From: a virus
Virus record (IMG/VR): IMGVR_UViG_3300042904_000243
Span: 1-26,402 of that record
Reading direction: 5' to 3' (one strand)
DNA length: 26,402 nucleotides
Position numbers and translations under genes: made by a program. Of this stretch, positions 2,370 through 22,522 are shown piece by piece; position 1 is the stretch's first letter; each line of letters opens with the position of its first letter. The notes beneath the pieces are model-generated. The model saw nothing but the letters and a program-made list of their open reading frames with translations. It was not told the origin of the DNA and did not search any database.

Positions 2370-2747
2370 ATGGCAACCGAACAGCGCGGGCTGTGCATCG
2401 GCTTTCTGACGGCCTCGGCCGACAACAGCACGAAGCAGCACCGTTTCGTCAAGGTCAGCGGTGACCTCACCATCACCGTCTGCGCCGCCAGCACCGACAA
2501 GCCGATCGGCATCCTGCAGAACAAGCCCGCCTCGGGCGCGGCAGCCGACGTCATGATCACCGGCGTCAGCAAGGTCATTCTCGCGGCCACCCTCTCGGCG
2601 GGTGCCGAAGTCATGAGCGACGCCAACGGCGCCGCTGTGGCAGCGGCGACGGCCACCAACCGCTCCCTGGGCATTCTGCTCAAGGGTGGTGTCTCCGGCG
2701 ACGTCGTCGAAGTGCTCCTGGGCGCGCAGTCGCGCCTCATCCCGTAA
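2370..2747 (+). CDS. DUF2190-like capsid decoration protein
   Basis: This 125-residue protein resembles the DUF2190 family, small beta-rich proteins that trimerise on the capsid surface and stabilise it. Family-like elements are KQHRFVKVSGDLTITVCAAS (22-41), KPIGILQNKPASGAAADVM (44-62), the SKVILAATLSAGAEVM strand pair and a late RSLGILLKGGVSGDVVEVLL. The length fits the family. GGAG 7 bases before the ATG is a reasonable ribosome site. It lies directly upstream of the major capsid gene, a common order for decoration proteins. The role follows from family resemblance plus position. Confidence 0.75.
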   Translation: MATEQRGLCIGFLTASADNSTKQHRFVKVSGDLTITVCAASTDKPIGILQNKPASGAAADVMITGVSKVILAATLSAGAEVMSDANGAAVAAATATNRSLGILLKGGVSGDVVEVLLGAQSRLIP

Positions 2748-2781
2748 GCCCACGTCACCCTCCCCTGAGAGACCCTTCCCC

Positions 2782-3753
2782 ATGGCTCCACGGACTCGCA
2801 TCCAGAAGGCGTCGCCCACTCCGGGTGACGTGCACGTCAACGCGCCGCTGACGAACATCAGCGTCGCCTACGTGCAGGCCGCCTCGTCCTTCATCGCGGA
2901 CAAGGTGTTCCCGAACGTTCCTGTTTCCCAGCAGAGCAATCTGTACTACCTGTTCGACAAGGCGGACTTCCTCCGCGACGAGGCCAAGCCTCGCGCGCCG
3001 GGCACCGAGTCGGCGGGTGGTGGGTTCCAGGTCAGCACGGCCTCGTACTCCTGCCTCGTGGAGGCGTTCCACAAGGACATCGACGACCAGACCCGCGCCA
3101 ACGCGGACTCGGTCCTCAGCCTGGACAAGGCGGCCACGGAGTACGTCACCCAGAAGCTCCTGATTCGTCGGGAGCGCAAGTGGGTCAACTCGTTCTTCAA
3201 GGCGGGCGTCTGGGGGACGGACATCACCCCGGGCACGCTGTGGTCGGTCGCGGCGACGGCCAACCCCAACGCCGACGTGGAGACGGGCAAGCTGACCATC
3301 CAGCGCGCCACGGGCTTCAAGCCCAACACGCTGGTGATCGGCGCCGAGGTTCTGAGCGCGCTGCGCCTGTGCGCGGCCATCAAGGACCAGTTCAAGTACA
3401 CCTCGGCGGACTCCATCAACCTGGCCATGCTGGCCCGGTACTTCGACATCGAGCGCGTCCTGGTGCTCGAGAGCGTGTACGAGACGGCGGTCGAGGGCGC
3501 CGCGAGCTCCATGGCGTTCATCGGGGGCAAGCACGCGCTGCTCTGCTACAGCGCCCCGTCGCCGTCGCTCATGACGCCCACGGCGGGCTACACGTTCAAC
3601 TGGGCGGGCTTCACCGGCGCCCAGAACGGCTTCCGCACCAAGCGGATTCGCGCGGAGCTCCTGAGCTCCGACCGCATCGAGTCCGAGATGGCGTCGGATA
3701 TGAAGATCGTGGCCAGCAGCATGGGCTACTTCTTCGCCAGCGTGGTGGCGTAA
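2782..3753 (+). CDS. Major capsid protein (HK97-fold expected)
   Basis: This 323-residue protein follows protease, scaffold and decoration genes and has the pattern of a major capsid family: an N-terminal arm (VHVNAPLTNISVAYVQ), FIADKVFPNVPVSQQSNLYY, and FLRDEAKPRAPGTESAGGGF. Further on are a helix with VTQKLLIRRERKWVNSFFKAG (the E-loop/spine region is not resolvable by eye), PNTLVIGAEVLSALR, and a late MTPTAGYTFNWAGF. The HK97 fold is expected for all such proteins but is not proven here. ATG at 2782 is chosen because the same frame is open further upstream only through the decoration gene. GAGAG lies 10 bases before the start. A stop at 3751-3753 is followed one base later by the next start. 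Confidence 0.82.
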   Translation: MAPRTRIQKASPTPGDVHVNAPLTNISVAYVQAASSFIADKVFPNVPVSQQSNLYYLFDKADFLRDEAKPRAPGTESAGGGFQVSTASYSCLVEAFHKDIDDQTRANADSVLSLDKAATEYVTQKLLIRRERKWVNSFFKAGVWGTDITPGTLWSVAATANPNADVETGKLTIQRATGFKPNTLVIGAEVLSALRLCAAIKDQFKYTSADSINLAMLARYFDIERVLVLESVYETAVEGAASSMAFIGGKHALLCYSAPSPSLMTPTAGYTFNWAGFTGAQNGFRTKRIRAELLSSDRIESEMASDMKIVASSMGYFFASVVA

Positions 3754-4205: not shown

Positions 4206-4802
4206 ATGGCAATCATTGTCGAGGACGGAACGCTCCCAACCGGGGCCAATAGCTACCAAACCGCTGCGAACGTGACCACGTTCGCCGCAGCCCGGAACCT
4301 CACCGGCTGGGCCGCGTTGAGCTCCACACAGCAGGAGGCCGCGCTCCACGAGGCCATGCTGTACCTCAACAACGAGCGCCGGTACACCTACCGGGGGACG
4401 CGCCGCACCGCCACCCAGCGGAACGCCTGGCCGCGCGACGACGCCTCCGAGTACCGGGGCCCTGAGCTCGACAACGACTACATCAGTTGGCGCCTGCAGG
4501 ACGCCCAGTGTCTGCTGGCCATTCGCGCGGGCGCGTCGCCCGGGAGCCTGCAGCCTGACCTCGCTCGAGGCGGGGCAGTGCAGACCGAGACCGTGGACGT
4601 CATCAGCACCACCTACTTCGAGGGCGCCTCCCCGGAGACGCTCATGAGCGAGGTGGACGGGCTGTTGGCCCCGCTGTGCCTGACCCCCGGCACCACGCTC
4701 CCGGTCCCGTATCAAGCCACGCCGGACGATGCGGTGGAATTCACGGCAGGGACCTACAGCAACCCCTCGGGCGCTGACGACGGCTCTGCATACGAACCCT
4801 AA
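4206..4802 (+). CDS. Head-tail connector/adaptor (DnaT-like family)
   Basis: The 198-residue protein resembles phage adaptors annotated as DnaT-like ssDNA-binding proteins, which dock on the portal. The N-terminus has the typical MAIIVEDGT..ANSYQTAANV pattern, followed by helical segments with AALHEAMLYLNNERRYTYRGTRRT and QRNAWPRDDA, where the Q..WPR motif is diagnostic. The C-terminal third (after about residue 125) is less conserved and ends in a low-complexity tail. Its position after the capsid module fits an adaptor. There is no obvious Shine-Dalgarno before ATG 4206 (upstream CCCTAGCTGGTC). The DNA-binding label of the family is historical; a structural connector role is more likely. 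Confidence 0.72.
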   Translation: MAIIVEDGTLPTGANSYQTAANVTTFAAARNLTGWAALSSTQQEAALHEAMLYLNNERRYTYRGTRRTATQRNAWPRDDASEYRGPELDNDYISWRLQDAQCLLAIRAGASPGSLQPDLARGGAVQTETVDVISTTYFEGASPETLMSEVDGLLAPLCLTPGTTLPVPYQATPDDAVEFTAGTYSNPSGADDGSAYEP

Positions 4803-4814
4803 CAGGAACCGCTC

Positions 4815-5648
4815 ATGCTCTGGGTCCCTCAAAAGGGTGCGGTCAAGGTCATCACCAACCAAGGCATCGTCGGGAGCAACACCCCCGGCACCGCAGTCCC
4901 ATGTAATGCCTCCACCACGCTCGACGGCGCCGTCACCGAGATCATTTCGGCGGCGAACAACACGCAGAATTCGTGGGGCATCTCCATTTGGATTTCGGAG
5001 ACCGGCGCCTCGGCGACCATCGCCCAAGCCGCCATGGACATCCTCATTGGCGGGGCGACGGATGATGTCCTGATTTCCGCCCTGTTGTGCGGCTACGCTC
5101 GCGCGGCAGGCCAGGGCGGGTATGCGTGGTTCTTCCCGCTCCACATCCCTGCGGGCGTCCGGATTGCCGCCCGATTCGCCAGCGTGCGCACGGGCATCAG
5201 CGCCCGGTGCATCATCAAGCTGTATGGGGGAGGCCCGCCCCCCTTCCGCGTGGGGCGGAAGGTCACCACCTACGGCACGCAAGTGAACAACGTGCGCGGT
5301 CAAACCGTGGTCCCAGCCACGAGCGGCGGCGCCGCCACAGCCACGCAGCTCACTGCCGCCACCAGCGAAGACCACTTCGCCTTCCTGCCGGGGTTCCAGC
5401 CTGAAACGGACAGCACGCTCGGGCAGAGCGGCCTCAGTATTGGGATCGGCATCGGCGCCTCGGTGGAGGAGCGGATTGGCACGTGGGAGTTCATCTCGCT
5501 CGGCAACGAGGATTGCACGGGCCCCTTGGACTTCCCCCTGCCGGCGTTCCGTGACGTCCCTGCTGGTACACGCCTGACCATGCTTGCCTCCAATTCGGCG
5601 GCGTCGAATGACGACGCTTACGGGGGCCTCATCTACGCTGTGAGCTAA
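4815..5648 (+). CDS. Unidentified beta-rich virion protein
   Basis: The 277-residue product is not recognised. It has no signal peptide or membrane helix and is rich in Gly, Ala, Thr and short hydrophobic strands: IHIPAGVRIAARF-type stretches (here FPLHIPAGVRIAARFASVR), a GGGPPPF turn, and a repeated GIGIGASVEER region. The overall look is a beta-sandwich or jelly-roll structural protein. A CAGGAA sequence 6 bases before ATG supports the start. It opens the run of accessory genes between the adaptor and the head-closure gene, so a head- or neck-surface role is plausible. Confidence 0.6.
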   Translation: MLWVPQKGAVKVITNQGIVGSNTPGTAVPCNASTTLDGAVTEIISAANNTQNSWGISIWISETGASATIAQAAMDILIGGATDDVLISALLCGYARAAGQGGYAWFFPLHIPAGVRIAARFASVRTGISARCIIKLYGGGPPPFRVGRKVTTYGTQVNNVRGQTVVPATSGGAATATQLTAATSEDHFAFLPGFQPETDSTLGQSGLSIGIGIGASVEERIGTWEFISLGNEDCTGPLDFPLPAFRDVPAGTRLTMLASNSAASNDDAYGGLIYAVS

Positions 5649-5654
5649 CCTCCC

Positions 5655-6005
5655 ATGGCTATCACGGAGCCGTATGAATTGGACGGCGTGACCGTTGGCT
5701 CCTCGGAGCTGTCGATCGTGTCAGGGACCACCAGCCTTCAAACCATCGCGGTGGCCGGGGTCTATCAGTTGTGGGTGGACGCGAGCGCTATGGTGAAGGG
5801 CGACGAGTTCAAGATCCGCATCTACGAGAAGGTGGAAGCCACCGGCGGCACCAAGCGTGTGTGCTTCTCTCAGACCCTCCTGGGAGTACAATCGGAGCTG
5901 TTTGTCACGCCCACGCTCGTGCTCTTGAACGGATTCGACTTCACCATCCAGAAAATCGCCGGGGCGGATTGCGCGTTCGACGCTAGTGTTCGCAAAATCG
6001 CCTAG
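5655..6005 (+). CDS. Small beta-rich phage structural protein
   Basis: The 116-residue product contains VYQLWVDASAMVKGDEFKIR, then IYEKVEATGGTKRVCF, and ends GFDFTIQKIAGADCAFDASV followed by RKIA. This strand pattern (a 'GDEFKIRIYEKV' core and a 'G.DFTIQKIAG' end) recurs in small phage proteins encoded near fibre-like genes, but I cannot name a characterised function. It starts 6 bases after the previous stop behind ACCTCCC with no Shine-Dalgarno, and ends 2 bases before the next start. It probably belongs to the same surface structure as its neighbours. Confidence 0.6.
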   Translation: MAITEPYELDGVTVGSSELSIVSGTTSLQTIAVAGVYQLWVDASAMVKGDEFKIRIYEKVEATGGTKRVCFSQTLLGVQSELFVTPTLVLLNGFDFTIQKIAGADCAFDASVRKIA

Positions 6006-6007
6006 CC

Positions 6008-7987
6008 ATGTCGGCGTATTTCTGGTTCGGAGGCGCGGCGGAGGCGGGGCTCCTTGCGAGTCCCGCCGTTCCCGCGTTGGTGGTGGACACGCAACCGGCA
6101 TCCACCACGGCGCCAAGCGCTGTGATGTCGCCGGTGGTGGTGCGAATGACCACCGACGGCTCCACCACCGATACCAGTTTCACCGGCGATATCACGCTGG
6201 CGTGGTCTCCCGCGAACGCCTACGGCTCGCTGGGGGGCACCGTGACGGTAGCCGCTGTGGCGGGTATTGCCACGTTCAGTAACCTGATTCCTTCGAACCA
6301 CCAAGGCGGCGCCTTCACGTTGACGGCGTCCGCGTCTGGGGTCGCCGACGTGACCACCACGGAGTTCTACGTGGTGGGCGCGGAACTGCAATCCCTCCAG
6401 GACTTTGTGGACGACAACGGCGGGAACAGCGTCTTCCCTGAAGTGTACGACCTGCGCTTCAACGTTGATGTCGTGGGCGGGGCCGCCTCGGGAGTCCGGG
6501 ACGCGCTGGGCGGGCTTGGGGGGCGCACCCCCGGGCGGACCTTCGCACAGGCCACGTCAGGCAATCGCCCCACCGTCAACGGAACCGTGGGCCAGGACTC
6601 GTCGCTGACCCTGGACGGAACGGACGACTTCATGACCACCACGGGCGCCGCGTTGACCAAACTGATTGGGTCTGCCGCAGCCCCGAACCCCGTCCACGTG
6701 TTTGCGGTGATGAAGGCCACCGGCGACGGTCCGCTCGCGGGCATTGCCGCAGACGAAACCTCGGCCACGACCTACCCGTTCATGATGATCCGCCCGCAAG
6801 GGGGCTTCTGGCAAGGGACCATCGCCAGCGACGGCGCGGGCGTGGGGGGCTCTGGCAATAAATGGGCCGGGGCGTTTACCCCGGCGCCCGGTTATGCGCG
6901 TGACGCGAACCGACGCTTGGTTTGGATTGGGAAGAACGGGTGGCACACGGACGCCACCGACTCTAATGTGGGCGCGGTCTACAAGTTTGGGATTGCTGGG
7001 GTGCCGGTGGCGCGGCATGGGCGGGTGTTCGACGCCACAAACGCCAACACGAAGTTGGTGCTGGGACGACTCGGTGCCACCTACGGCGCGGGCGAAATTT
7101 GTGCGCTCCTGGTCTACACCGGGGAGCCCGACAACACGTTCCTCAACGCACTGACCGCGTGGGCCGAGTCCCAGTTCGGCGCGCTCGCCGAGCAGAGCAC
7201 CAACCCGACTGTGGTATTCAGCGGCAACTCGTTGGTACAGGGCAACTCCGGGTCTGATGACCTGTTAGCAACGCTCGCCACCGGCACCACCACGTGGGCC
7301 TACGTGGCCGCCAACCGGAACACCGGCTCGCGCGGGACGTTGCTCGCGCAGATGCCGCTCATGAAGGAGATTCACCAATACAATGTTGGGCGGAACGGGG
7401 ATCAGTTCCCAAAGATGCTCGACTGGTTCGACCGGGACATCAGCGTGTACAAGGACGCGGCCCGCACGGGCCCGGTCATCGTGGTGGTCAACGAAGTCCT
7501 CAACACGCTGAACACCGTGGGGCTCGGGATTGACACGCTGGCCGAGTTGCTCGATGTGGTGGACGACTACCACGCCGCGTGTCAGGCCGTGGGCATCAAG
7601 TTCGTCATGTGTACGGTGCCGGACGCGAAGATCTGGTATGTCGGCGGAGCCACGGCGTCAACAGGCGGGTTCAGCGCCATCGGACAAATCGCCAGCGACT
7701 TCAATGACGAGCTCCGGGCGAACCCCACCGCGCATTGTGATTACGTGTTGGACCTTGCCGCCGTGGGGGGTCTGTTCGAGGTGGGGGTCCTGGCCGACAA
7801 GCGGTGCTTCAACGCCACCTACTACAACGACCCCGCGACCGATGGCGGCCACCTCACCACCACAGGCTACAACGAGGCGGGGATAGTGATCAAGGATTGG
7901 TTCGACGCGAACGAGGGAGTCCTCTGGCCCACCAACGCTCGAGGCGCTGCTCGGCGCCACTACTCACGCTGGCCGTCTGCCGCATAA
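6008..7987 (+). CDS. Ig / LamG-like / SGNH-hydrolase multidomain virion protein
   Basis: This 659-residue protein looks like an adhesin with an esterase. Residues about 24-123 form an Ig-like beta domain. Residues about 145-390 form a concanavalin/LamG-like lectin domain (SSLTLDGTDDFM, HVFAVMKATGDG, LLVYTGEPDNTFLNALTAW). Residues about 400-635 look like an SGNH/GDSL hydrolase: block I FSGNSLVQG with likely nucleophile Ser408 (Asn in place of the usual Asp), Asn495 in VVVNEVLN, and the catalytic pair Asp612/His615 in TDGGHLTTTGY. Such enzymes deacetylate surface polysaccharides. The C-terminus is a short basic tail. It lies in the neck module, not after the tail genes as most receptor-binding proteins do. 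The domain calls are by eye; the hydrolase assignment is the weakest at the block II and III positions. Confidence 0.65.
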   Translation: MSAYFWFGGAAEAGLLASPAVPALVVDTQPASTTAPSAVMSPVVVRMTTDGSTTDTSFTGDITLAWSPANAYGSLGGTVTVAAVAGIATFSNLIPSNHQGGAFTLTASASGVADVTTTEFYVVGAELQSLQDFVDDNGGNSVFPEVYDLRFNVDVVGGAASGVRDALGGLGGRTPGRTFAQATSGNRPTVNGTVGQDSSLTLDGTDDFMTTTGAALTKLIGSAAAPNPVHVFAVMKATGDGPLAGIAADETSATTYPFMMIRPQGGFWQGTIASDGAGVGGSGNKWAGAFTPAPGYARDANRRLVWIGKNGWHTDATDSNVGAVYKFGIAGVPVARHGRVFDATNANTKLVLGRLGATYGAGEICALLVYTGEPDNTFLNALTAWAESQFGALAEQSTNPTVVFSGNSLVQGNSGSDDLLATLATGTTTWAYVAANRNTGSRGTLLAQMPLMKEIHQYNVGRNGDQFPKMLDWFDRDISVYKDAARTGPVIVVVNEVLNTLNTVGLGIDTLAELLDVVDDYHAACQAVGIKFVMCTVPDAKIWYVGGATASTGGFSAIGQIASDFNDELRANPTAHCDYVLDLAAVGGLFEVGVLADKRCFNATYYNDPATDGGHLTTTGYNEAGIVIKDWFDANEGVLWPTNARGAARRHYSRWPSAA

Positions 7988-8003
7988 CACAGGAGCTTGA
8001 CCG

Positions 8004-9179
8004 ATGTTCAAAAATGTGGCGGGCCAGAAGATTGCGCTGTTCGCCTTCGACACCGCAACCGGCAAGGGCAAGGCGGGCGACGCAGCCAACATCACCGCGT
8101 ATGTCAACAAAGCCTACGCGGGCGCGGTCGCGTTGACGGACACCTCGGCCACCGAGATTGATGCCGTCAACCAGAAAGGGTGGTACTTGTTCGACCTGAC
8201 TCAGGGCGAAACCGACGCCGACGCCCTCCTGTTCTCGGGCAAGAGCGTCACGGCCGACATCGAGGTGGTGGGGGTCCTGGTGTTCACGCTCCCTGCGGCG
8301 TTCACGTCGCATGTGGCCCAGACGGGGGACTCCTACGCCCGTATTGGGGCCAACGGGGCGGGGCTGTCCGCGCTCCCCTGGAATGCCGCGTGGGACGCGG
8401 AAGTTCAGTCGGAAGTGGCGGACGCACTCACCGCCCATAATACCGCCACGGCACCCGACGTGACCGCCATCAAGGCCAAGACCGACAACCTCCCCAGCGA
8501 CCCCGCCGACGCCTCGGACATTGCGGCCAGCTTTGCGACCGTGAACACCAAGCTGGATACGATTGACGACTTCCTGGACACAGAACTGCCGGCGCTCACC
8601 ACGGCAGTAGCAGACTTGCCCACGAACGCCGAGTTGGCCACCGCGCTGGGGACGGCTGACGACGCGGTCCTCGCCGCCATTGCGGCACTGAACAACCTGT
8701 CCAGCGCGGGCGCGCAGGCTGCTGCTGCTGCTGCGCTCGCGGCCTACGGCGCGGCCACAGCGCCCGACGTCACCGCTATCAAGGCCAAGACCGACAACCT
8801 CCCCAGCGACCCGGCGGACGCGTCCGACATTGCGAGCTCGTTCGGAACGGTCAACACCAACCTCGCCACCGTCGCCGGGTACCTGGACACAGAGATCGCG
8901 GCTATCAAGGCCAAGACCGACAACCTCCCGGCGAGCCCCGCCGCCACCGGCGACATCCCCACCGCCGCCCAGAACGCCGACGCGCTCCTGGGGCGGAATC
9001 AGCAGGGCGGGAGCAACACCACGCCCACCGTCAGTCAGGCGCTGGCCGGGGGGCTCATGCGGTTCACCATCGACACGGGCACCGGCGTGCTTACGGTCCT
9101 GCACGGGGACGGTACCACGGCCTACACCAGGACCCTCACGCGCGAAGAGCAGGACGCCATCATCAGCGCCTCGGCCTGA
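8004..9179 (+). CDS. Fibre-like protein with 'IKAKTDNLP' repeats
   Basis: The 391-residue product has an N-terminal domain (1-105) of a type common in phage fibre-like proteins: KNVAGQKIALFAFDTATGKG, GDAANITAYV, GWYLFDLTQGETDADALLF, VVGVLVFTLP. A central helical region carries three copies of IKAKTDNLP (from residues 156, 259 and 301), two of them within a longer DVTAIKAKTDNLPSDPADAS unit. Such repeats usually form trimeric coiled-coil shafts. An Ala-rich stretch lies at about 239-248. The C-terminus (TPTVSQALAGG...TLTREE) is a small beta unit also seen in this family. AGGAG 8 bases before ATG is a strong ribosome site. It is likely a fibre or whisker on the neck or head; its position before the head-closure gene is the only clue to location. 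Confidence 0.7.
   Translation: MFKNVAGQKIALFAFDTATGKGKAGDAANITAYVNKAYAGAVALTDTSATEIDAVNQKGWYLFDLTQGETDADALLFSGKSVTADIEVVGVLVFTLPAAFTSHVAQTGDSYARIGANGAGLSALPWNAAWDAEVQSEVADALTAHNTATAPDVTAIKAKTDNLPSDPADASDIAASFATVNTKLDTIDDFLDTELPALTTAVADLPTNAELATALGTADDAVLAAIAALNNLSSAGAQAAAAAALAAYGAATAPDVTAIKAKTDNLPSDPADASDIASSFGTVNTNLATVAGYLDTEIAAIKAKTDNLPASPAATGDIPTAAQNADALLGRNQQGGSNTTPTVSQALAGGLMRFTIDTGTGVLTVLHGDGTTAYTRTLTREEQDAIISASA
8469..8929 (+). repeat. Three direct DNA repeats inside the fibre-like gene
   Basis: Copies start with ATCAAGGCCAAGACCGACAA at 8469, 8778 and 8904. The first two are identical for 35 bases (8469-8503 and 8778-8812); the third matches for 26 bases (8904-8929). Identity at silent positions implies recent duplication or gene conversion. 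Confidence 0.9.
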
Positions 9180-9181
9180 CC

Positions 9182-10012
9182 GTGTTGAACCTCCTGGCGC
9201 TGCTGTTGTGGTCCGGCTCCCCCACGGGAGCCGCGCCCAGCACGCCGGTCGTTGCCGACCCCGCAGACACCACATACGACCCCCAGCGAGCGCTGGCGCT
9301 CCGCCTCCTCACGGCCAAGGGCTTCGCGGGGACATTGCGCCGTGTTCCTGACACGGCCCCCACCCGAAACCGTCTGACGGATCAGCTCACCGACCCCGGT
9401 CACACCGACTACCCCATCATTGCCGCCGTGTTCCCCGGCACGGGCGACGGCGTGACCAGCGGGCGGCAGGTGTTGATTGCGGGGCTGGACCTGGACGTGA
9501 CCCCAGGACCGGGGGATTGGGTGCTAGGGGTGGAGGGGCGCAATTGGCGCGTGGTGGATACCCGAACCCTGAACCCAGACGACGCCGGGCCCATTCTGCA
9601 CCGCTGCACACTCGAGGGCAGCGCAGGTGAGCCAATCCTGGCCTCGGTGACGTATGCCCCACAAACGGCGCTTGCGTTGCGCCTCGTGCAAGCGAAGGGG
9701 CTCTCCGTCACGCTCCGGCACTACCCAGACGCGGCCCCCGTGCGGACCACCCGCCTCACTGATCAGGTGACCGACCCGCTCTACACCGACTACTCCATCA
9801 AGGGAGTCGTGCTCCCGGGCGCGGAAGCCGGGGACAGTCCGCAAGAGTCCCGGCGCCGGTTGCTGGTGGCGGGCGCCTCTTGCCCGGTCAACATCAAGTA
9901 TGGGGACGAGGTGTTCGGGATTGGCAACGACACGTGGAAGGTGGCCCGGAGCAAGCCGCTGGGCCCAGACAACCGGCGCCCGGTGTTGTTCAGCGTGGAG
10001 CTCGAGAAGTGA
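9182..10012 (+). CDS. Head-closure-like neck protein with internal tandem duplication
   Basis: The 276-residue protein contains two related copies of one domain, at about 36-146 and 161-274. Both open with T(Y)xPQxALALRL, then AKG, TLR, PD.AP.R, RLTDQ.TDP..TDY.I, V..PG, a strand with LIAGLD or LVAGAS, and end with a WRV/WKV strand before a conserved ...GP...L segment. A single domain of about 110 residues between adaptor and gp10-like genes is the usual head-closure or stopper protein, so this looks like a fused doublet. The N-terminus MLNLLALLLW is strongly hydrophobic and followed by a Gly/Pro/Ala linker; it is not a convincing secretion signal. GTG at 9182 lies two bases after the previous stop. 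The end overlaps the next GTG by four bases. The head-closure role is inferred from position and length. Confidence 0.62.
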   Translation: MLNLLALLLWSGSPTGAAPSTPVVADPADTTYDPQRALALRLLTAKGFAGTLRRVPDTAPTRNRLTDQLTDPGHTDYPIIAAVFPGTGDGVTSGRQVLIAGLDLDVTPGPGDWVLGVEGRNWRVVDTRTLNPDDAGPILHRCTLEGSAGEPILASVTYAPQTALALRLVQAKGLSVTLRHYPDAAPVRTTRLTDQVTDPLYTDYSIKGVVLPGAEAGDSPQESRRRLLVAGASCPVNIKYGDEVFGIGNDTWKVARSKPLGPDNRRPVLFSVELEK

Positions 10013-10482
10013 CCCGCGTCCGCAAGGTCCACATCAAAGAGTTCACGGCGGTGCTGGACAAGCAGAAAACGGCCATGCCCCGCGCCATCAAGCGCTTGGT
10101 GCAGGGCATCATCCTCGAGGTGTGTGAAGGGGTGATTGTGGGCAACGAGTTCAGCCCCGGCACGCCGGTGGATACCGGCTACGCCCGAGCCTCCTGGTGG
10201 CTCTCCATTGACGGCAAGGGCCAGGCCCCCGCGCTCCCGGACATTGACCAAAGCAGCCGGGGCAAGGACAAGATTGCCGTCATCGATTTTGACGCGGCGG
10301 CGCTTGCAGAAATCGCCTCCATTGTTCCAGGCCAGGAAGTCCGGCTCAATAACAACGCTGAGCATATCCTCCCGCTCGAGCGCGGCCACAGTAAGCAGGC
10401 CCCCGTGGGAATGGTCGCAGTGGCGGCCAACGCGCTCCCCGCCATCGTCGCCAAAGTCAAGAAGCAACAGGGGTGGAAATGA
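10009..10482 (+). CDS. HK97 gp10-like neck/tail-completion protein
   Basis: The 157-residue product matches the HK97 gp10-like family, which takes part in joining head and tail. The key motif is GTPVDTGYARASWWLSI (51-67), and a second family element is NNAEHILPLERGHSKQAPVG followed by MVAVA near the C-terminus. The length fits the family. The start is the GTG at 10009, which overlaps the preceding TGA as GTGA, implying coupled translation. The frame stays open upstream to 9880, but that extension lies inside the head-closure-like gene and is Arg/Pro-rich shadow sequence. The end overlaps the tail terminator gene as ATGA. Confidence 0.83.
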   Translation: MTRVRKVHIKEFTAVLDKQKTAMPRAIKRLVQGIILEVCEGVIVGNEFSPGTPVDTGYARASWWLSIDGKGQAPALPDIDQSSRGKDKIAVIDFDAAALAEIASIVPGQEVRLNNNAEHILPLERGHSKQAPVGMVAVAANALPAIVAKVKKQQGWK

Positions 10483-11168
10483 GTCTCCAACAGAGCAGTC
10501 GGCTCGCCCTTCGGAACCTGCTGGCCACGGTTATCAAGGCTACCGCTGCCCCGACCGGGGCCACACTGACCGCTGCCGGGCTCCTGACCCGGACCGACGG
10601 GGGCAGCTTCCTCACCGACCGCTTCAGCGCCGGGGACGAGGTGTTGATTGGCGGGTTCACCGGCGACAACAACGGCGTGGCGTACATCACCGCCCTCCCC
10701 GCCAGCACCCAGCTCACGCTCCGCCTCCCCGAAGACACCAGCCGGGTATGGGCCAACCAGACCAGCGCCGGGGCCATCAGCGTGGTGGCAGGCGCTCCAC
10801 TGGGACAGGCCGACGGCAACGTCAAGTACGTGCCGACGGTGGGCCAACCCTGGTGGCGGGAAAGCTACAAGTACGGCCCCGAGACGCGCCAGGGTCTCGG
10901 CCAGCAGCAGTTCCGGCTCCGGCTCCAGGGACTCTACCAGCTTGGCATCTTCTACCCCAAGAACGCGGGCAGCCACGGATTGGACGGTATGACAGATGCC
11001 GTGAGTCGCGTATGCTCTCCCGGCACTGAACTGGTATACAACACCCAGAAGGTCACCATCTACAGTTGCTCCCCAGCCGACGGCGCCCAGGAGACGGAGT
11101 GGGCTTCTACTCTGTTGTCCATCCGCTTCCAGGCGGATATGCTCGTCAACTCCACCGTAACCCCTTGA
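10479..11168 (+). CDS. Tail terminator protein with inserted beta module
   Basis: The 229-residue protein resembles phage tail-terminator proteins of the DUF4128 type, which form a ring capping the tail tube. Family-like parts are an N-terminal helix (1-20), QPWWRESYKYGPETRQGLG (123-141), RLRLQGLYQLGIFYPKNAG (146-164), a helix with GMTDAVSRVCSPGTELVY, and a final WASTLLSIRFQADM strand. Between helix and core, residues about 20-108 hold an extra unit with GDEVLIGGFTGDNNGVAYIT, similar to a unit in the tail tube protein that follows. ATG 10479 is chosen because it overlaps the upstream TGA as ATGA and has GGGGTGG just upstream. A GTG at 10473 is the alternative. Confidence 0.72.
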   Translation: MSLQQSSRLALRNLLATVIKATAAPTGATLTAAGLLTRTDGGSFLTDRFSAGDEVLIGGFTGDNNGVAYITALPASTQLTLRLPEDTSRVWANQTSAGAISVVAGAPLGQADGNVKYVPTVGQPWWRESYKYGPETRQGLGQQQFRLRLQGLYQLGIFYPKNAGSHGLDGMTDAVSRVCSPGTELVYNTQKVTIYSCSPADGAQETEWASTLLSIRFQADMLVNSTVTP

Positions 11169-18360: not shown

Positions 18361-20742
18361 ATGCCGTACACCTTCACCACCGCCGATCGTGAGCTGGTGG
18401 AATCGGGAGTGTTCTCCTGTTTCCAACGGTTGTGGCTCACAGACCCGAACGGGGACTGGGTGTTCGTGGGCATGCTGGCCAGCGACCTGGGGGGACCGCA
18501 CGACTTCCAGATTGCTGCTGAACTCTCCCATCACGTGGACGCGCACACCTACGCCTTCACCGCACTGGTGGCGCGGCAACACGGTACGCTGTCCCTGAGC
18601 CCGTATCGCTTCAACTCCCCGCTCAACGCGGACAGTACGGGCGTATGGGCCCCGTTCCTGGATGTGCGCCGGTACTGGATGGTAGACCAGGTCGTGATGC
18701 TCACAGGAATGGTTCCCGACGACACCAACTACGTGGAAATGGGGCGGGGCATTGTGGACGAGATTCTCGTCAACCTCCCGGCCAACACCATCAACCTCGT
18801 GGGGCGCGGGCTCGAGGGTGAGCTCATGGACGCCACCATCACCGACCCCACGTTCTATGGCAATGATGCGGTCCCCGTCCCGCTGGCGACGGTCCTCCAG
18901 CAGATGCTGGACGACTGGGGCCCGGGCGGGTACACTGTGGTGGAGGACGACCCCGCGCTGTTCGACATGGTGCTCCATCAAGTCGCGCGGGGGAACCTGT
19001 GGCCCGCCATGGCCGCCGCCGCCGACAAAGCCTCGTGCCTCCTCGAGGTGTTGCCCGGGGCCATCGACGGGGAGTTTGACGTCCGTATTACAAAGCCTAA
19101 CCTGACCCCCGTCGGCCCGGACTACACCATTGAGGCGTACACGGTCACCGACCTGCCGACCGTCGCCACCAAGCTGGAAAGCGTCCGCACCGTGGTGCGG
19201 CTCACCTACGAGAGCACCACCGGGGGACGCACGACCATCCAGCGCCCCACGGTGCTCCCCAGCGTGGCGAGCACCCGGTATGGTGTCCGCATTCTGGACA
19301 TTGACCTGTCGGCGGAGACCCAGGTCACGGCAGACACCCCGGCAGGGGACTTTGCGGATCGGGTGCTCAGCGATGTGCAGTTCCCCACGGTGGAGTACGA
19401 ACTCACGGTGCCTGGCCTGTGGTGGGTCAAGCTGCGGGACTATGTCAAGCTGACCCCGGACTATCAGGTCTTCGACGATGACCAGTATGGGGCCATCCAG
19501 ACGTACACCAAGCGTTGGGAAAACCACGTCCTCAAGACCAAGCTCGGGATGCGCGGCCAGCCGTCCCTGCGGTACCAGACGTGGATTGACCTCGGGCGCG
19601 GGGGCTCGGGCTCGGTCGCCTCAATTGTGGACCTGTCGGCGAGCTTCCAGGAACTGAACACGGGGCTGGCCCGGCTTGCGGGCATCCAGTATGCCGGCAC
19701 CGTGAACAAGCAGACGCGCTCCGTGCGGGTCCGCATCTCAGAAGACCCCACCTTCGCCACCAGCATTTCCGACACCACGACCACGCTCCCGTATGGGACG
19801 GTAGATTTTGCGAACCTGGTTCCGCTCTCCACCGCCCAGCGCGACAAGACGTTCTACGTGCAGGCCACGCCGTACAGCGGGCCCGCGCTGGGGGGAGTGA
19901 TGGGAACGCCCCTCGTGCGGGTGGTGTACACGCCCGCGCTGGTCCCGGTGATCACGAGCCCCAACATCACACTCGCCAACGCCGGCACCACGTTCGACCT
20001 CATCGTGACCAAAGGTCCGTTTGCGGAGTCGCTCAAGATTGAAATCTCCGCGGACCCCACGTTCGCCACGAGCAACTACACCCCGTTCCCCACGTACTAC
20101 CAGTTCGTGCTGCCCGCGGATGTCCTCACCTACTCGGACTTTGTCCCTGTGGCGGACTTCGGCCTGAAGCTCTATGCCCGGCTCACGCCCTACACGGGAC
20201 CCTTGGTGGCGGGACTCCCCACGGGGAGCGCCGGGGCGCCGGTGGTCATTGCCACGGTGGACGGGATGGTCAACCCGACCACCCAGCTCCTGCCAGGAGG
20301 CGCAGCGGCGGGGGACATCTTGGTGTTCGACGGGACCAACTGGCTCCCCGAAGCCCCCGTGGCCCCCAGCACCGAACGGAGCCTGGTGTTCCCGTTTGGG
20401 AACGGGGCGACCATGGGCGCGGCGGGGGATTGGTTGGCGCTGATGCCGGGGTTTGACTTCACGGCTGCGCGCTGGAAGGTTCGGGCCCTCAAGGCCGACC
20501 GCTCACAAGCCACGCTCGACGCTACCTTCACGGTCAAGAAGGTGGAGGAGGCAGGTGGGGCGTTGGTGGATCTTGGGGGTGGAACGCTCACCCTGTCTGG
20601 CGTGTCTGAAGCCAGCGGCTGCGCAGCAGCATGGGCGAACAAGGCGTGTCTGGAAAACGACGAAATCGTCGTCACACTGGAGACGTTGACCAACCCCAAC
20701 GCCATCACTTCGCTGGTGTTCACCCTCACGGTAGAGACATAA
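18361..20742 (+). CDS. Tail hub-like protein with Fn3-like repeats
   Basis: This 793-residue protein is probably the central tail-tip hub. Residues 1-435 carry hub-like beta/alpha segments: GVFSCFQRLWLTDPNGDWVF, LLEVLPGAIDGEFDVRITKP, VELTVPGLWW-type strands (VEYELTVPGLWWVKLRDYVK), and IQTYTKRWENHVLKTKLGMR. Two related modules follow at about 450-520 and 550-630, marked by RISEDPTFATS and EISADPTFATS and ending YVQATPYSG and YARLTPYTG; these look like Fn3-type repeats. A linker with GDILVFDGTNWLPEAP (about 650-666) leads to a C-terminal beta domain. The first residues follow the preceding stop with no spacer, implying coupling. The hub assignment rests on order and length; no peptidase motif is visible. 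Confidence 0.66.
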   Translation: MPYTFTTADRELVESGVFSCFQRLWLTDPNGDWVFVGMLASDLGGPHDFQIAAELSHHVDAHTYAFTALVARQHGTLSLSPYRFNSPLNADSTGVWAPFLDVRRYWMVDQVVMLTGMVPDDTNYVEMGRGIVDEILVNLPANTINLVGRGLEGELMDATITDPTFYGNDAVPVPLATVLQQMLDDWGPGGYTVVEDDPALFDMVLHQVARGNLWPAMAAAADKASCLLEVLPGAIDGEFDVRITKPNLTPVGPDYTIEAYTVTDLPTVATKLESVRTVVRLTYESTTGGRTTIQRPTVLPSVASTRYGVRILDIDLSAETQVTADTPAGDFADRVLSDVQFPTVEYELTVPGLWWVKLRDYVKLTPDYQVFDDDQYGAIQTYTKRWENHVLKTKLGMRGQPSLRYQTWIDLGRGGSGSVASIVDLSASFQELNTGLARLAGIQYAGTVNKQTRSVRVRISEDPTFATSISDTTTTLPYGTVDFANLVPLSTAQRDKTFYVQATPYSGPALGGVMGTPLVRVVYTPALVPVITSPNITLANAGTTFDLIVTKGPFAESLKIEISADPTFATSNYTPFPTYYQFVLPADVLTYSDFVPVADFGLKLYARLTPYTGPLVAGLPTGSAGAPVVIATVDGMVNPTTQLLPGGAAAGDILVFDGTNWLPEAPVAPSTERSLVFPFGNGATMGAAGDWLALMPGFDFTAARWKVRALKADRSQATLDATFTVKKVEEAGGALVDLGGGTLTLSGVSEASGCAAAWANKACLENDEIVVTLETLTNPNAITSLVFTLTVET

Positions 20743-20743
20743 C

Positions 20744-21787
20744 ATGGGTATCATCGGCTACGGCAATGACGACATCGACGTCTCGCTGATTGGTGGCACC
20801 GTCGTCACGTCGGGCCATGGTATGGATACGGCGCTGGTAAAGACGGCCATCTACAGCAACGCGGCCTATCTGACACCGAGCCACAGCATCTACTTCACGG
20901 ACCAGAAGTGGGGCGGTGCGGCGTTGGCGTCATTCCGGCTGCAATTCCTGGCCAACTGCGGCGACGTCGGGAGCTTCAACACGCACACGTTGAAGTGGCT
21001 GGTCTTCAAGAACCTCACCTCCGGGCTGGAGGTGTTCCGGATCTGTCACGTGACCGCGACCCGGAACATGACCCTGCAGTACAACACGAGCAGCACGCCG
21101 GGGTCGCCCACGTGGGTGGCGGTGGGCGTCACGCAAACAGAGCCCGCTGGCGTCCACTTCCATACGCTCGAGGTGGACATTCACGACACCACCGGGGTGC
21201 TGAAGTGGTATCGCGACGGCATATTGCTCGCCTCCATGACCGGCGACACGAAGCTCATCGGCGTGAGCACGATTGAGGTCGTGGACTTCTGGGGCTGGAG
21301 CAACGACACCGGCTTCGGGGGTGGTGACTACTACTGGGCCATGCATCTGCTCACGACGGTGGACTATCAACCGTATGGGCTGCAGGTGGTGAACCCGGCG
21401 ATCAACGGGGCAGGCGCCGTGGCTGGGCAGGACTCGGGCGTCTATACGGATGTGAACGAAACGACGCTCAACCGGGCGAACGGGCTCACTCTGGACACAG
21501 CCGGGGACGGGTTCTCCGGCACGGTTGCCGACTTGGCCGGCACGGCGGCCACGGCGCCCATCATGGCGGTGCGGGCCGCCGCAGATGTGCGGTGCGGCTC
21601 GACCGGGCCGAACGATGTGAAGCTATTCGTGCGCGTGAGTGGCACCAATTACTACTCGCCCTCCATCCCTATCAGCGGCATCGGCTTTGTCACGGTCATG
21701 TATATCTGGGAGCTGAATCCGGCGACCGGCCTCCCCTGGACCATTGCCGAGTACAACGCGGCAGAAGTCGGCTGCGAGGCCGCGTAA
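20744..21787 (+). CDS. LamG-like tail adhesin
   Basis: The 347-residue product begins one base after the hub stop codon. Residues about 30-220 have a concanavalin/LamG-like pattern (SHSIYFTDQKWGGAALASFR, HFHTLEVDIHDTTGVLKWYR, DGILLASMTGDTKL), expected to bind glycans. Residues about 225-347 form a second beta domain that ends NPATGLPWTIAEYNAAEVG, a C-terminal module with an 'NP.TG..WT..E.NA.E.G' pattern common in phage tail proteins. It is likely part of the tail tip and a receptor-binding candidate. No chaperone domain or enzyme motif is visible. Confidence 0.65.
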   Translation: MGIIGYGNDDIDVSLIGGTVVTSGHGMDTALVKTAIYSNAAYLTPSHSIYFTDQKWGGAALASFRLQFLANCGDVGSFNTHTLKWLVFKNLTSGLEVFRICHVTATRNMTLQYNTSSTPGSPTWVAVGVTQTEPAGVHFHTLEVDIHDTTGVLKWYRDGILLASMTGDTKLIGVSTIEVVDFWGWSNDTGFGGGDYYWAMHLLTTVDYQPYGLQVVNPAINGAGAVAGQDSGVYTDVNETTLNRANGLTLDTAGDGFSGTVADLAGTAATAPIMAVRAAADVRCGSTGPNDVKLFVRVSGTNYYSPSIPISGIGFVTVMYIWELNPATGLPWTIAEYNAAEVGCEAA

Positions 21788-21790
21788 CCC

Positions 21791-22522
21791 ATGGGGGCAC
21801 GCGCCTACCGCATCTTTGTTCGCTCGGTCAACGGGTCCACGGCTGTGTCGATCGGCGAGCTCGAGCTCCGGGCCACGGCAGGAGGCGCCGCCCAGAACGG
21901 CGGCGTTGCTATCTACTCGGGCCAAGCGGACGCCACAATCGGGACCACCGGGCACGCGGCGTCCAATGCGTTTGATGGGCTGTTGACCACCCGGTGGGCC
22001 GTCCTGATGAACGGCCAAGGCACTATGTATGGTGCGTATGGCGCGTGGCTCGGTCGAGATTACGGTGTTGGTGCCAACGTTGAGGTGGAAGAGTTCTTCT
22101 TGGGGCAGCGGTCAGATTGCTGTACGGATCAGGGACCCAACCGCTTTGTCCTGCAACGGACCACCGACGACCCCGCCGATTTGGGAGCCCGGTGGTACAA
22201 TCACTCGGCGGAATACTCCGGATACACCTGGACGCTCGGCCAGACCCGCGTGTTCACCGGGCCGTTCACCCCCACCACATTCAACGTCTACAAGCTCCAG
22301 TCCACGGCACTAATCGGTGGATGGGACAACGCGATCACCGTCTCCAAGCTCAAACTGGACGCCCTCGTGGGCGGCATCCCGAACGGGCTGATGGTTAGCA
22401 AGCTCAAACTGGACGCCCTCGTGGGGGCCGAACCGGCCCGCGTCACGACGAGCAAACTCACGTTGCAGGCGCTCTTGTATTTCCGCCCCCGGGCGACCAA
22501 CGGCTCTGCGCAAATCATCTAA
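21791..22522 (+). CDS. Discoidin (F5/8C)-like tail adhesin with C-terminal repeats
   Basis: The 243-residue product starts three bases after the previous stop. Residues about 5-75 resemble an F5/8-type C (discoidin-like) carbohydrate-binding domain: YRIFVRSVNGSTAVSIGELE, then ASNAFDG and TRW. The middle is beta-rich. The last ~60 residues contain three copies of a short strand motif (SKLKLDALVG, SKLKLDALVG, SKLTLQALLY) spaced 17-18 residues apart. Such repeats occur at the ends of phage tail proteins and may anchor partner fibres or form a small beta-helix. With the preceding gene it completes the tail-tip adhesin set before the lysis genes. Confidence 0.62.
   Translation: MGARAYRIFVRSVNGSTAVSIGELELRATAGGAAQNGGVAIYSGQADATIGTTGHAASNAFDGLLTTRWAVLMNGQGTMYGAYGAWLGRDYGVGANVEVEEFFLGQRSDCCTDQGPNRFVLQRTTDDPADLGARWYNHSAEYSGYTWTLGQTRVFTGPFTPTTFNVYKLQSTALIGGWDNAITVSKLKLDALVGGIPNGLMVSKLKLDALVGAEPARVTTSKLTLQALLYFRPRATNGSAQII
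22345..22425 (+). repeat. 27-bp direct repeat in the discoidin-like adhesin gene
   Basis: An identical 27-base unit beginning CAAGCTCAAACTGGACGCCC is present at 22345-22371 and 22399-22425, a 54-base period. A third, diverged copy follows near 22452. Exact nucleotide identity points to recent tandem duplication. Confidence 0.9.

What the first reader, a model, noticed from the sequence alone, without database searches (positions are those of the whole stretch)
4815..9179. Adhesin/esterase module inserted between the adaptor and head-closure genes
Adaptor (4206), head-closure (9182), gp10-like (10009) and terminator (10479) genes normally sit next to each other. Here four accessory genes (4815, 5655, 6008, 8004) of about 4.4 kb are placed between adaptor and head closure. 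They encode beta-rich proteins, an Ig-lectin-SGNH hydrolase protein and a repeat-rich fibre-like protein. This suggests a neck- or head-attached appendage (fibres or whiskers) with glycan-binding and esterase activity, separate from the tail-tip adhesins encoded at 20744-22522. Two spatially separate adhesion systems on one virion would be notable.
Basis: partly seen in the sequence, partly recalled or inferred. Interest (0 to 1): 0.68.

Follow-up and report, generated by a model that had tools for sequence, protein, structure and literature searches.

The report
Accessory fibre genes in phage neck
A soil phage carries four extra genes for probable sugar-binding, fibre-like proteins wedged between two neck genes that normally touch, and two of them form a previously undescribed protein pair found in many uncultured phages; extra head or neck fibres are known in other phages, so this is a new variant rather than a new kind of machine.

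Summary
Profile searches confirm an Ad1 adaptor (4206), Hc1 head closure (9182), Ne1 (10009) and tail terminator (10479). The four genes at 4815, 5655, 6008 and 8004 fill the Ad1-Hc1 gap in one tightly packed operon. In four relatives with public records Ad1 and Hc1 abut.

The first two genes (A, B) are an undescribed, nearly obligate pair: B is present in 58 of 61 viral contigs with A. No Pfam, PHROG or cultured-phage match was found for either. A is predicted as two tandem jelly rolls (pLDDT 88). D is an Ig-like sandwich, a coiled coil and a small C-terminal domain, resembling lactococcal collar/whisker proteins. C shows SGNH and lectin motifs only.

Relatives give mixed evidence on location. 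Among 50 non-redundant A loci, the nearest identified upstream gene is a head or neck gene in 28 and a tail gene in 5; in 6, A lies just before terminase. Gene position alone does not prove virion position.

Best reading: an accessory adhesin/fibre module, more likely at the head-neck end than the tail tip. Two adhesion systems per virion are already known. Extra: this phage's Hc1 is a tandem duplication, unique among 65 ORFs with this domain.

The parts
4206..4802 (+). Head-tail adaptor Ad1 (upstream border)
   Evidence: phrog_477 E 5e-41; PF20557 DnaT_2 E 2e-39
4815..5648 (+). A: 277-aa all-beta protein, two tandem homologous jelly rolls; undescribed family
   Evidence: AF2 pLDDT 87.6, pTM 0.88; halves align in profile comparison, single-pair E 1e-10; 61 viral loci; no Pfam/PHROG/cultured-phage/GTDB match
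5655..6005 (+). B: 116-aa partner of A
   Evidence: cluster present in 58 of the 61 A loci; one match in the phage-record collection, metagenome-assembled podovirus ctkAd229
6008..7987 (+). C: 659-aa putative Ig-like + lectin-like + SGNH-hydrolase-like protein (tip/enzyme candidate)
   Evidence: SGNH blocks by eye: GNSLVQG at residue 406, NVGRNGD 459, VVVNEVLN 492, DGGH 612; no family or profile support
8004..9179 (+). D: 391-aa fibre-like protein: Ig-like sandwich 1-98, helices 128-306, small C-terminal domain
   Evidence: AF2 mean pLDDT 76.9, N-terminal domain about 96; helical region repeats IKAKTDNLP three times; N-terminal domain in 95 viral stretches
9182..10012 (+). Head closure Hc1, tandem-duplicated (two ~120-aa copies, 47% identical)
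   Evidence: phrog_161 two stretches; halves E 5e-32; only this phage's ORF has two copies among 65 with the domain, the 65 including overlapping copies of the window
10009..10482 (+). Ne1 / gp10-like neck protein
   Evidence: phrog_169 E 1.6e-21
10479..11168 (+). Tail terminator
   Evidence: phrog_179 E 9e-12; PF13554 E 2e-8

Best explanation
A-B-C-D is an accessory virion module co-expressed with the head and neck genes that makes non-essential adhesion fibres, most likely displayed at the head-neck end of the particle. Proposed working: D anchors through its N-terminal Ig-like domain and projects as a coiled-coil (probably trimeric) shaft. C is the effector at or near the tip, binding glycans and removing acyl groups (SGNH-type). 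A, a double jelly roll, and its obligate partner B form an additional glycan-binding or adaptor unit of the same appendage. The module helps the phage hold on to, or move through, host surface or soil polysaccharide before the tail tip engages. Shown: gene content, order, rarity of the insertion, A-B linkage, predicted folds of A and of the D N-terminus. Inferred: virion incorporation, neck position, oligomeric state, activity of C, contacts between the four proteins.
For: The insertion breaks a normally abutting neck gene pair inside one packed operon. A and B are linked in 58 of 61 loci and travel together between sipho-, podo- and myovirus-like structural gene blocks. The nearest identified upstream gene of A is a head/neck gene in 28 of 50 non-redundant loci, and head/neck genes bracket it on both sides in nine. 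A + B + the D N-terminal family co-occur in three unrelated contigs of 38, 69 and 225 kb, in different orders. D homologues lie directly beside an Ad1 gene (L277), upstream of a neck-type gene cluster (L161, read by eye) and between portal- and MCP-type genes (L146, read by eye). D architecture = beta sandwich + coiled coil + C-terminal domain, as reported for neck passage structures (PMC6669499). In L020 the gene directly upstream of A is a homologue of podophage GP4 fibre-I protein gp80 (PF23140 E 6e-14; PDB 8jou_a E 5e-6). Lectin genes neighbour A-B in L016 (Laminin_G_3 E 3e-8, above cut-off) and, weakly, L008.
Against: No virion proteomics or complex prediction exists. A-B also sits after tail/baseplate genes (five loci) or just before terminase (six). 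The D N-terminus resembles BppU (4v96_AA Z 6.1; 80alpha baseplate 6v8i_AN Z 6.2) no better than unrelated Ig-like domains (top row Z 6.9), and no sequence match to BppU was found. The enzyme and lectin assignments of C failed statistical tests.
Confidence: 0.48

Rival explanations
1. Tail-tip or tail-side fibre module whose genes happen to lie in the head block; the proteins bind the tail or baseplate.
For: A-B homologues follow tail/baseplate genes in L016/L089, L092, L109, L114 and L129. BFVD fold matches of A include 'minor tail protein' and 'tail fiber-like' entries. The D N-terminus is as similar to baseplate BppU-type domains as to anything else.
Against: Most classifiable relatives sit in the head block, including podovirus-type contigs (portal phrog_1216) where A-B is bracketed by portal and scaffold/MCP. 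This phage already encodes proteins at 18361-22522 after the tape measure gene. No tail-binding domain was detected.
Confidence: 0.25
2. Capsid-wide head fibres or decoration proteins (T4 Hoc / phi29 gp8.5 type), not a neck structure.
For: In podovirus-type contigs A-B lies between portal and scaffold/MCP (clusters). Known Ig-like capsid decorations bind glycans, and the phi29 head fibre is a coiled coil (PMC7602432).
Against: In the window the site is between two neck genes, not next to the capsid genes. No capsid-binding motif was identified, and A has no homologue by sequence among solved structures.
Confidence: 0.17
3. Non-virion late 'moron' module: exported or released proteins that modify the host surface or surroundings.
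For: Several D-family homologues start with signal-peptide-like sequences (L244, L247, L264, L270, L277; by eye). SGNH enzymes can act on cell-surface polysaccharide (general knowledge).
Against: The window's own A, B, C and D have no signal-peptide-like start (by eye), and the coiled-coil shaft with a beta-sandwich N-terminus is a virion-fibre layout. A Gp80-type virion fibre gene lies next to A in L020.
Confidence: 0.1

Closest known systems
Lactococcal neck passage structure (NPS; collar/whiskers) of TP901-1 and 936 phages
   Same: Accessory, non-essential; beta-sandwich N-terminus, then coiled coil, then variable C-terminal domain with carbohydrate-binding or carbohydrate-esterase-type folds; coexists with a separate tail-tip RBP (PMC6669499, PMC4493119)
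   Different: NPS is one polypeptide and its gene in TP901-1 follows the baseplate genes. Here shaft (D) and putative effector (C) are separate genes, an A-B pair is added, the genes sit between Ad1 and Hc1, and no sequence homology was found
Podophage GP4 fibre I (gp80, PDB 8JOU)
   Same: Multi-protein accessory fibre; a gp80 homologue lies directly upstream of A in relative L020
   Different: The window has no gp80 homologue among A-D; A and B profiles do not match any PDB chain, 8JOU included
Alishewanella phage LSH1 'extra structural module' gp34-36 (PMC13243795)
   Same: Three-gene accessory virion module: adhesin/lyase-like payload, GP4-like fibril, Ig-fold protein; present in only part of the related IMG/VR genomes
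   Different: Located after lysis genes; payload is beta-helical. LSH1's own sequence was not compared; only a 50-kb part of Slicko01, a phage that shares a gp34-like domain, was fetched, and no profile was run on it
phi29 gp8.5 head fibres, T4 Hoc
   Same: Dispensable surface fibres or Ig-like decorations that aid adhesion (PMC7602432)
   Different: No sequence similarity found; different gene location
SGNH-domain tail fibres of Acinetobacter, Klebsiella and Pectobacterium phages (e.g. PMC11058221, PMC13123978, PMC9569702; seen as search results, not read)
   Same: Putative SGNH-type or deacetylating domain combined with binding domains
   Different: Those are tail fibres; C has only motif-level similarity and lies in the neck block

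Membership tests
Ad1-Hc1-Ne1-TrT siphovirus connector set | Four connector families in order | tested here: met
   phrog_477, 161, 169, 179
Ad1-Hc1-Ne1-TrT siphovirus connector set | Ad1 directly followed by Hc1 | tested here: not met
   4.4-kb insertion in the window; abutting in four relatives with public records
Lactococcal NPS (collar/whisker) | BppU-like N-terminal beta sandwich | tested here: inconclusive
   VIA Z 6.1 to TP901-1 BppU 4v96_AA, tied with unrelated Ig-like folds; no Pfam or PDB sequence match
Lactococcal NPS (collar/whisker) | Coiled-coil shaft after the sandwich | tested here: met
   helices 128-306 in the D model, moderate confidence
Lactococcal NPS (collar/whisker) | C-terminal carbohydrate-binding domain in the same chain | tested here: inconclusive
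   small low-to-moderate-confidence C-terminal domain in D, not searched alone; the putative lectin is in a separate gene, C
Lactococcal NPS (collar/whisker) | Located at the portal vertex | not testable with these tools
   needs EM
GP4 fibre-I gp80 family (PF23140) | Profile match of a window protein of the insertion | tested here: not met
   A-D give no PF23140 match; match only in relative L020
SGNH hydrolase (PF13472) | Profile match | tested here: inconclusive
   no Pfam match for C; profile alignment to a small SGNH set puts DGGHLTTTGY on the DxxH block, score 18.9 against at most 13.9 for shuffles, but E 0.057
SGNH hydrolase (PF13472) | Catalytic Ser block and Asp-x-x-His block in order | tested here: met
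   GNS at 406-408 and D612-H615; a loose two-block pattern, chosen after seeing the sequence, occurs in 0.2% of shuffles of this segment
ConA/LamG-like lectin | Profile match | tested here: inconclusive
   none for C
A-B pair (new family, defined here) | A immediately or closely followed by B | tested here: met
   58 of 61 loci

The most novel reading that the evidence does not exclude
The neck itself has been remodelled to carry the fibres: the tandem-fused Hc1 would close the head with six two-domain subunits instead of twelve, giving a true six-fold platform on which six trimeric fibres (D-C, with A-B) dock, that is, a neck-borne adhesion machine with an Hc1 adapted to it.
Probability: 0.13. 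Interest if true: 0.75.

Novelty: new variant of a known kind. Interest (0 to 1): 0.5.

Why it matters
If right, it describes a widespread, so far unnamed accessory module (A-B plus variable shaft and effector genes) that uncultured phages with different tails share and move between the head and tail ends of their structural genes. It would extend neck and head fibres beyond the few cultured models and give annotators a name for two gene families that now read 'hypothetical'. The duplicated Hc1 makes the symmetry mismatch at the head-tail joint open to test.

Tried and rejected
PDB fold matches of A (peptidylglycine monooxygenase, PNGase F; VIA Z 10.0 and 8.1) reflect a two-jelly-roll layout and I give them no functional weight. 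Hits of D in Pfam (baculovirus P10 and similar) are coiled-coil noise. GTDB genomes gave no relative of A; the D N-terminal family gave four MAG contigs from different phyla, so no host is assigned. Scans of viral contigs with C and with Hc1 returned only the same phage. phrog_644/26662 genes upstream of A in many loci looked gp80-like, but Pfam does not call them Gp80, so only L020 is used. phrog_161 searched over 50 records found only this phage: relatives may use other head-closure families or lack the region. The GP4 genome accession I tried was not in the collection. Recent transfer by composition: GC and codon use of A, C and D are ordinary; B is GC-poorer (0.59) but short, so nothing is claimed.

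Full report
WHAT IS THERE. The window is a virus record of 26,402 b, GC about 66%; an essentially identical 38,480-b contig, IMGVR_UViG_3300045996_001293, holds the same genes in the same order. Profile searches give: head maturation protease (206), capsid-assembly-type protein (1424), phrog_673 (2370), major head protein phrog_1005 (ORF ending 3753), Ad1 (4206), then four unassigned genes A (4815), B (5655), C (6008), D (8004), then Hc1 (9182), Ne1, terminator, tail protein phrog_290, chaperone, tape measure. The genes from Ad1 to Hc1 are separated by 2-16 nt, and promoter- or terminator-like sites are at chance level.

IS THE INSERTION UNUSUAL? Yes. In four relatives with public records the genes abut. 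In a mechanical ORF walk from Ad1 in 38 other loci, 30 have a 98-134-aa ORF abutting it. Only L033 shows an obvious fibre-like gene, collagen-type and repeat-rich, at the same place; its contig is an inverted duplication, so that case is weaker.

A AND B. A has no match in Pfam, PHROGs, the phage collection or GTDB genomes but 61 IMG/VR loci. B clusters with A in 58 of the 61. AlphaFold2 on a 16-row alignment gives A as an all-beta protein, pLDDT 87.6, pTM 0.88; its two halves are homologous by profile comparison (single-pair E 1e-10). Fold matches are to two-jelly-roll and carbohydrate-binding-module-like domains without functional weight. The A-B pair occurs with three kinds of virion: podovirus-type contigs (portal phrog_1216), a contig with a tail-sheath gene (L088), and siphovirus-type contigs such as the window and L018.

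LOCATION IN RELATIVES. After removing near-identical A proteins, 50 loci remain. Nearest identified upstream gene: head/neck in 28, tail in 5 (L089, L092, L109, L114, L129). Of the rest, 6 lie just before terminase, 1 before MCP, 2 before tail genes, 8 are unclassified. Strictly bracketed by head/neck genes on both sides: nine (L002, L006, L020, L021, L094, L098, L103, L104, L122). The labels come from PHROG scans of selected ORFs and from clusters, plus a few labels set by eye (for example TerL, portal, MTP and TMP in L009, L018, L021, L008, L089), so unlabelled genes may hide other markers. The module therefore favours, but is not bound to, the head block.

D. The N-terminal domain family gives 95 confirmed viral stretches. 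AlphaFold2 gives a confident sandwich (1-98), helices 128-306 and a small C-terminal domain. Among 997 PDB chains realigned, TP901-1 BppU (Z 6.1), the 80alpha baseplate (Z 6.2) and the NF5 baseplate (Z 5.9) are in the top 11 but tied with unrelated Ig-like folds. A, B and this domain co-occur in three unrelated contigs: the window's, L012 (68.8 kb) and L197/L268 (224.5 kb). In L277 the D-type gene directly precedes Ad1. In L161 it lies a few genes before a neck-type cluster and in L146 between portal- and MCP-type genes; those neighbour names were read by eye, not scanned.

C. No relatives and no profile match. Residues 406-412 GNSLVQG, 459-465 NVGRNGD, 492-499 VVVNEVLN and 612-617 DGGHLT fit the SGNH blocks in order; I chose these motifs by eye, and the shuffle figure (0.2%) applies to a loose two-block pattern picked after seeing the sequence. 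A profile test with seven SGNH regions, extracted automatically and partly of poor quality, was inconclusive. The lectin assignment is by eye. In L016 and, weakly, L008 a Laminin_G_3 protein is encoded next to or near A-B.

LITERATURE. Neck passage structures of lactococcal phages combine a BppU-like sandwich, a coiled coil and carbohydrate-binding or esterase-like domains, are dispensable, and coexist with tail-tip RBPs (PMC6669499); TP901-1's NPS gene lies after the baseplate genes although the structure is at the portal vertex (PMC4493119). LSH1 carries a three-gene extra structural module with a GP4-like fibril (PMC13243795). The gene directly upstream of A in L020 is a GP4 gp80 homologue. 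My memory of GP4's fibre I being anchored at the tail vertex was not verified from its own paper; PMC10925440 and PMC13243795 mention a 15-fold collar and a fibril connected to a tail nozzle collar.

HC1 DUPLICATION. The window's Hc1 is 276 aa with two copies, 47% identical over 122 aa. Among 65 ORFs with the domain, only this phage's (present in several overlapping loci) has two. A link to the inserted genes is speculation.

CONCLUSION. The gene-order observation is solid; an accessory adhesin/fibre module is likely; a neck position is plausible but unproven; the idea of two adhesion systems is not new.

Noticed in passing
window 9182-10012: Head closure protein Hc1 is an internal tandem duplication (47% identity between halves); the corresponding genes fetched from relatives encode single proteins of 115-131 aa.
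   Followed up: partly
L244, L247, L264, L270, L277 (D-family ORFs): Some D-family proteins begin with signal-peptide-like sequences, which is odd for a virion fibre.
   Followed up: no
L033 after Ad1 (2654-3199): A collagen-like, repeat-rich fibre gene follows Ad1 directly: a possible second, independent fibre insertion at this site (contig is an inverted duplication).
   Followed up: partly
L129 9276-13397; L018 5462-7117; L091; L109; L117: A is duplicated in several contigs; L129 has three A and three B genes in a row.
   Followed up: no
L020 4181-4543: Homologue of podophage GP4 fibre-I gp80 directly upstream of A; the same family is in over 600 mycobacteriophage records, annotated 'head protein', 'minor tail protein' or hypothetical.
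   Followed up: partly
MW202621 47046-49208 (L087): Protein sharing D's helical repeats lies between portal and major capsid genes of a metagenome-assembled siphovirus.
   Followed up: no
window 21791-22522: C-terminus repeats 'SKLKLDALVG' about three times, after a region with a weak match (E 1.7e-5) to phrog_12736 virion structural proteins.
   Followed up: no
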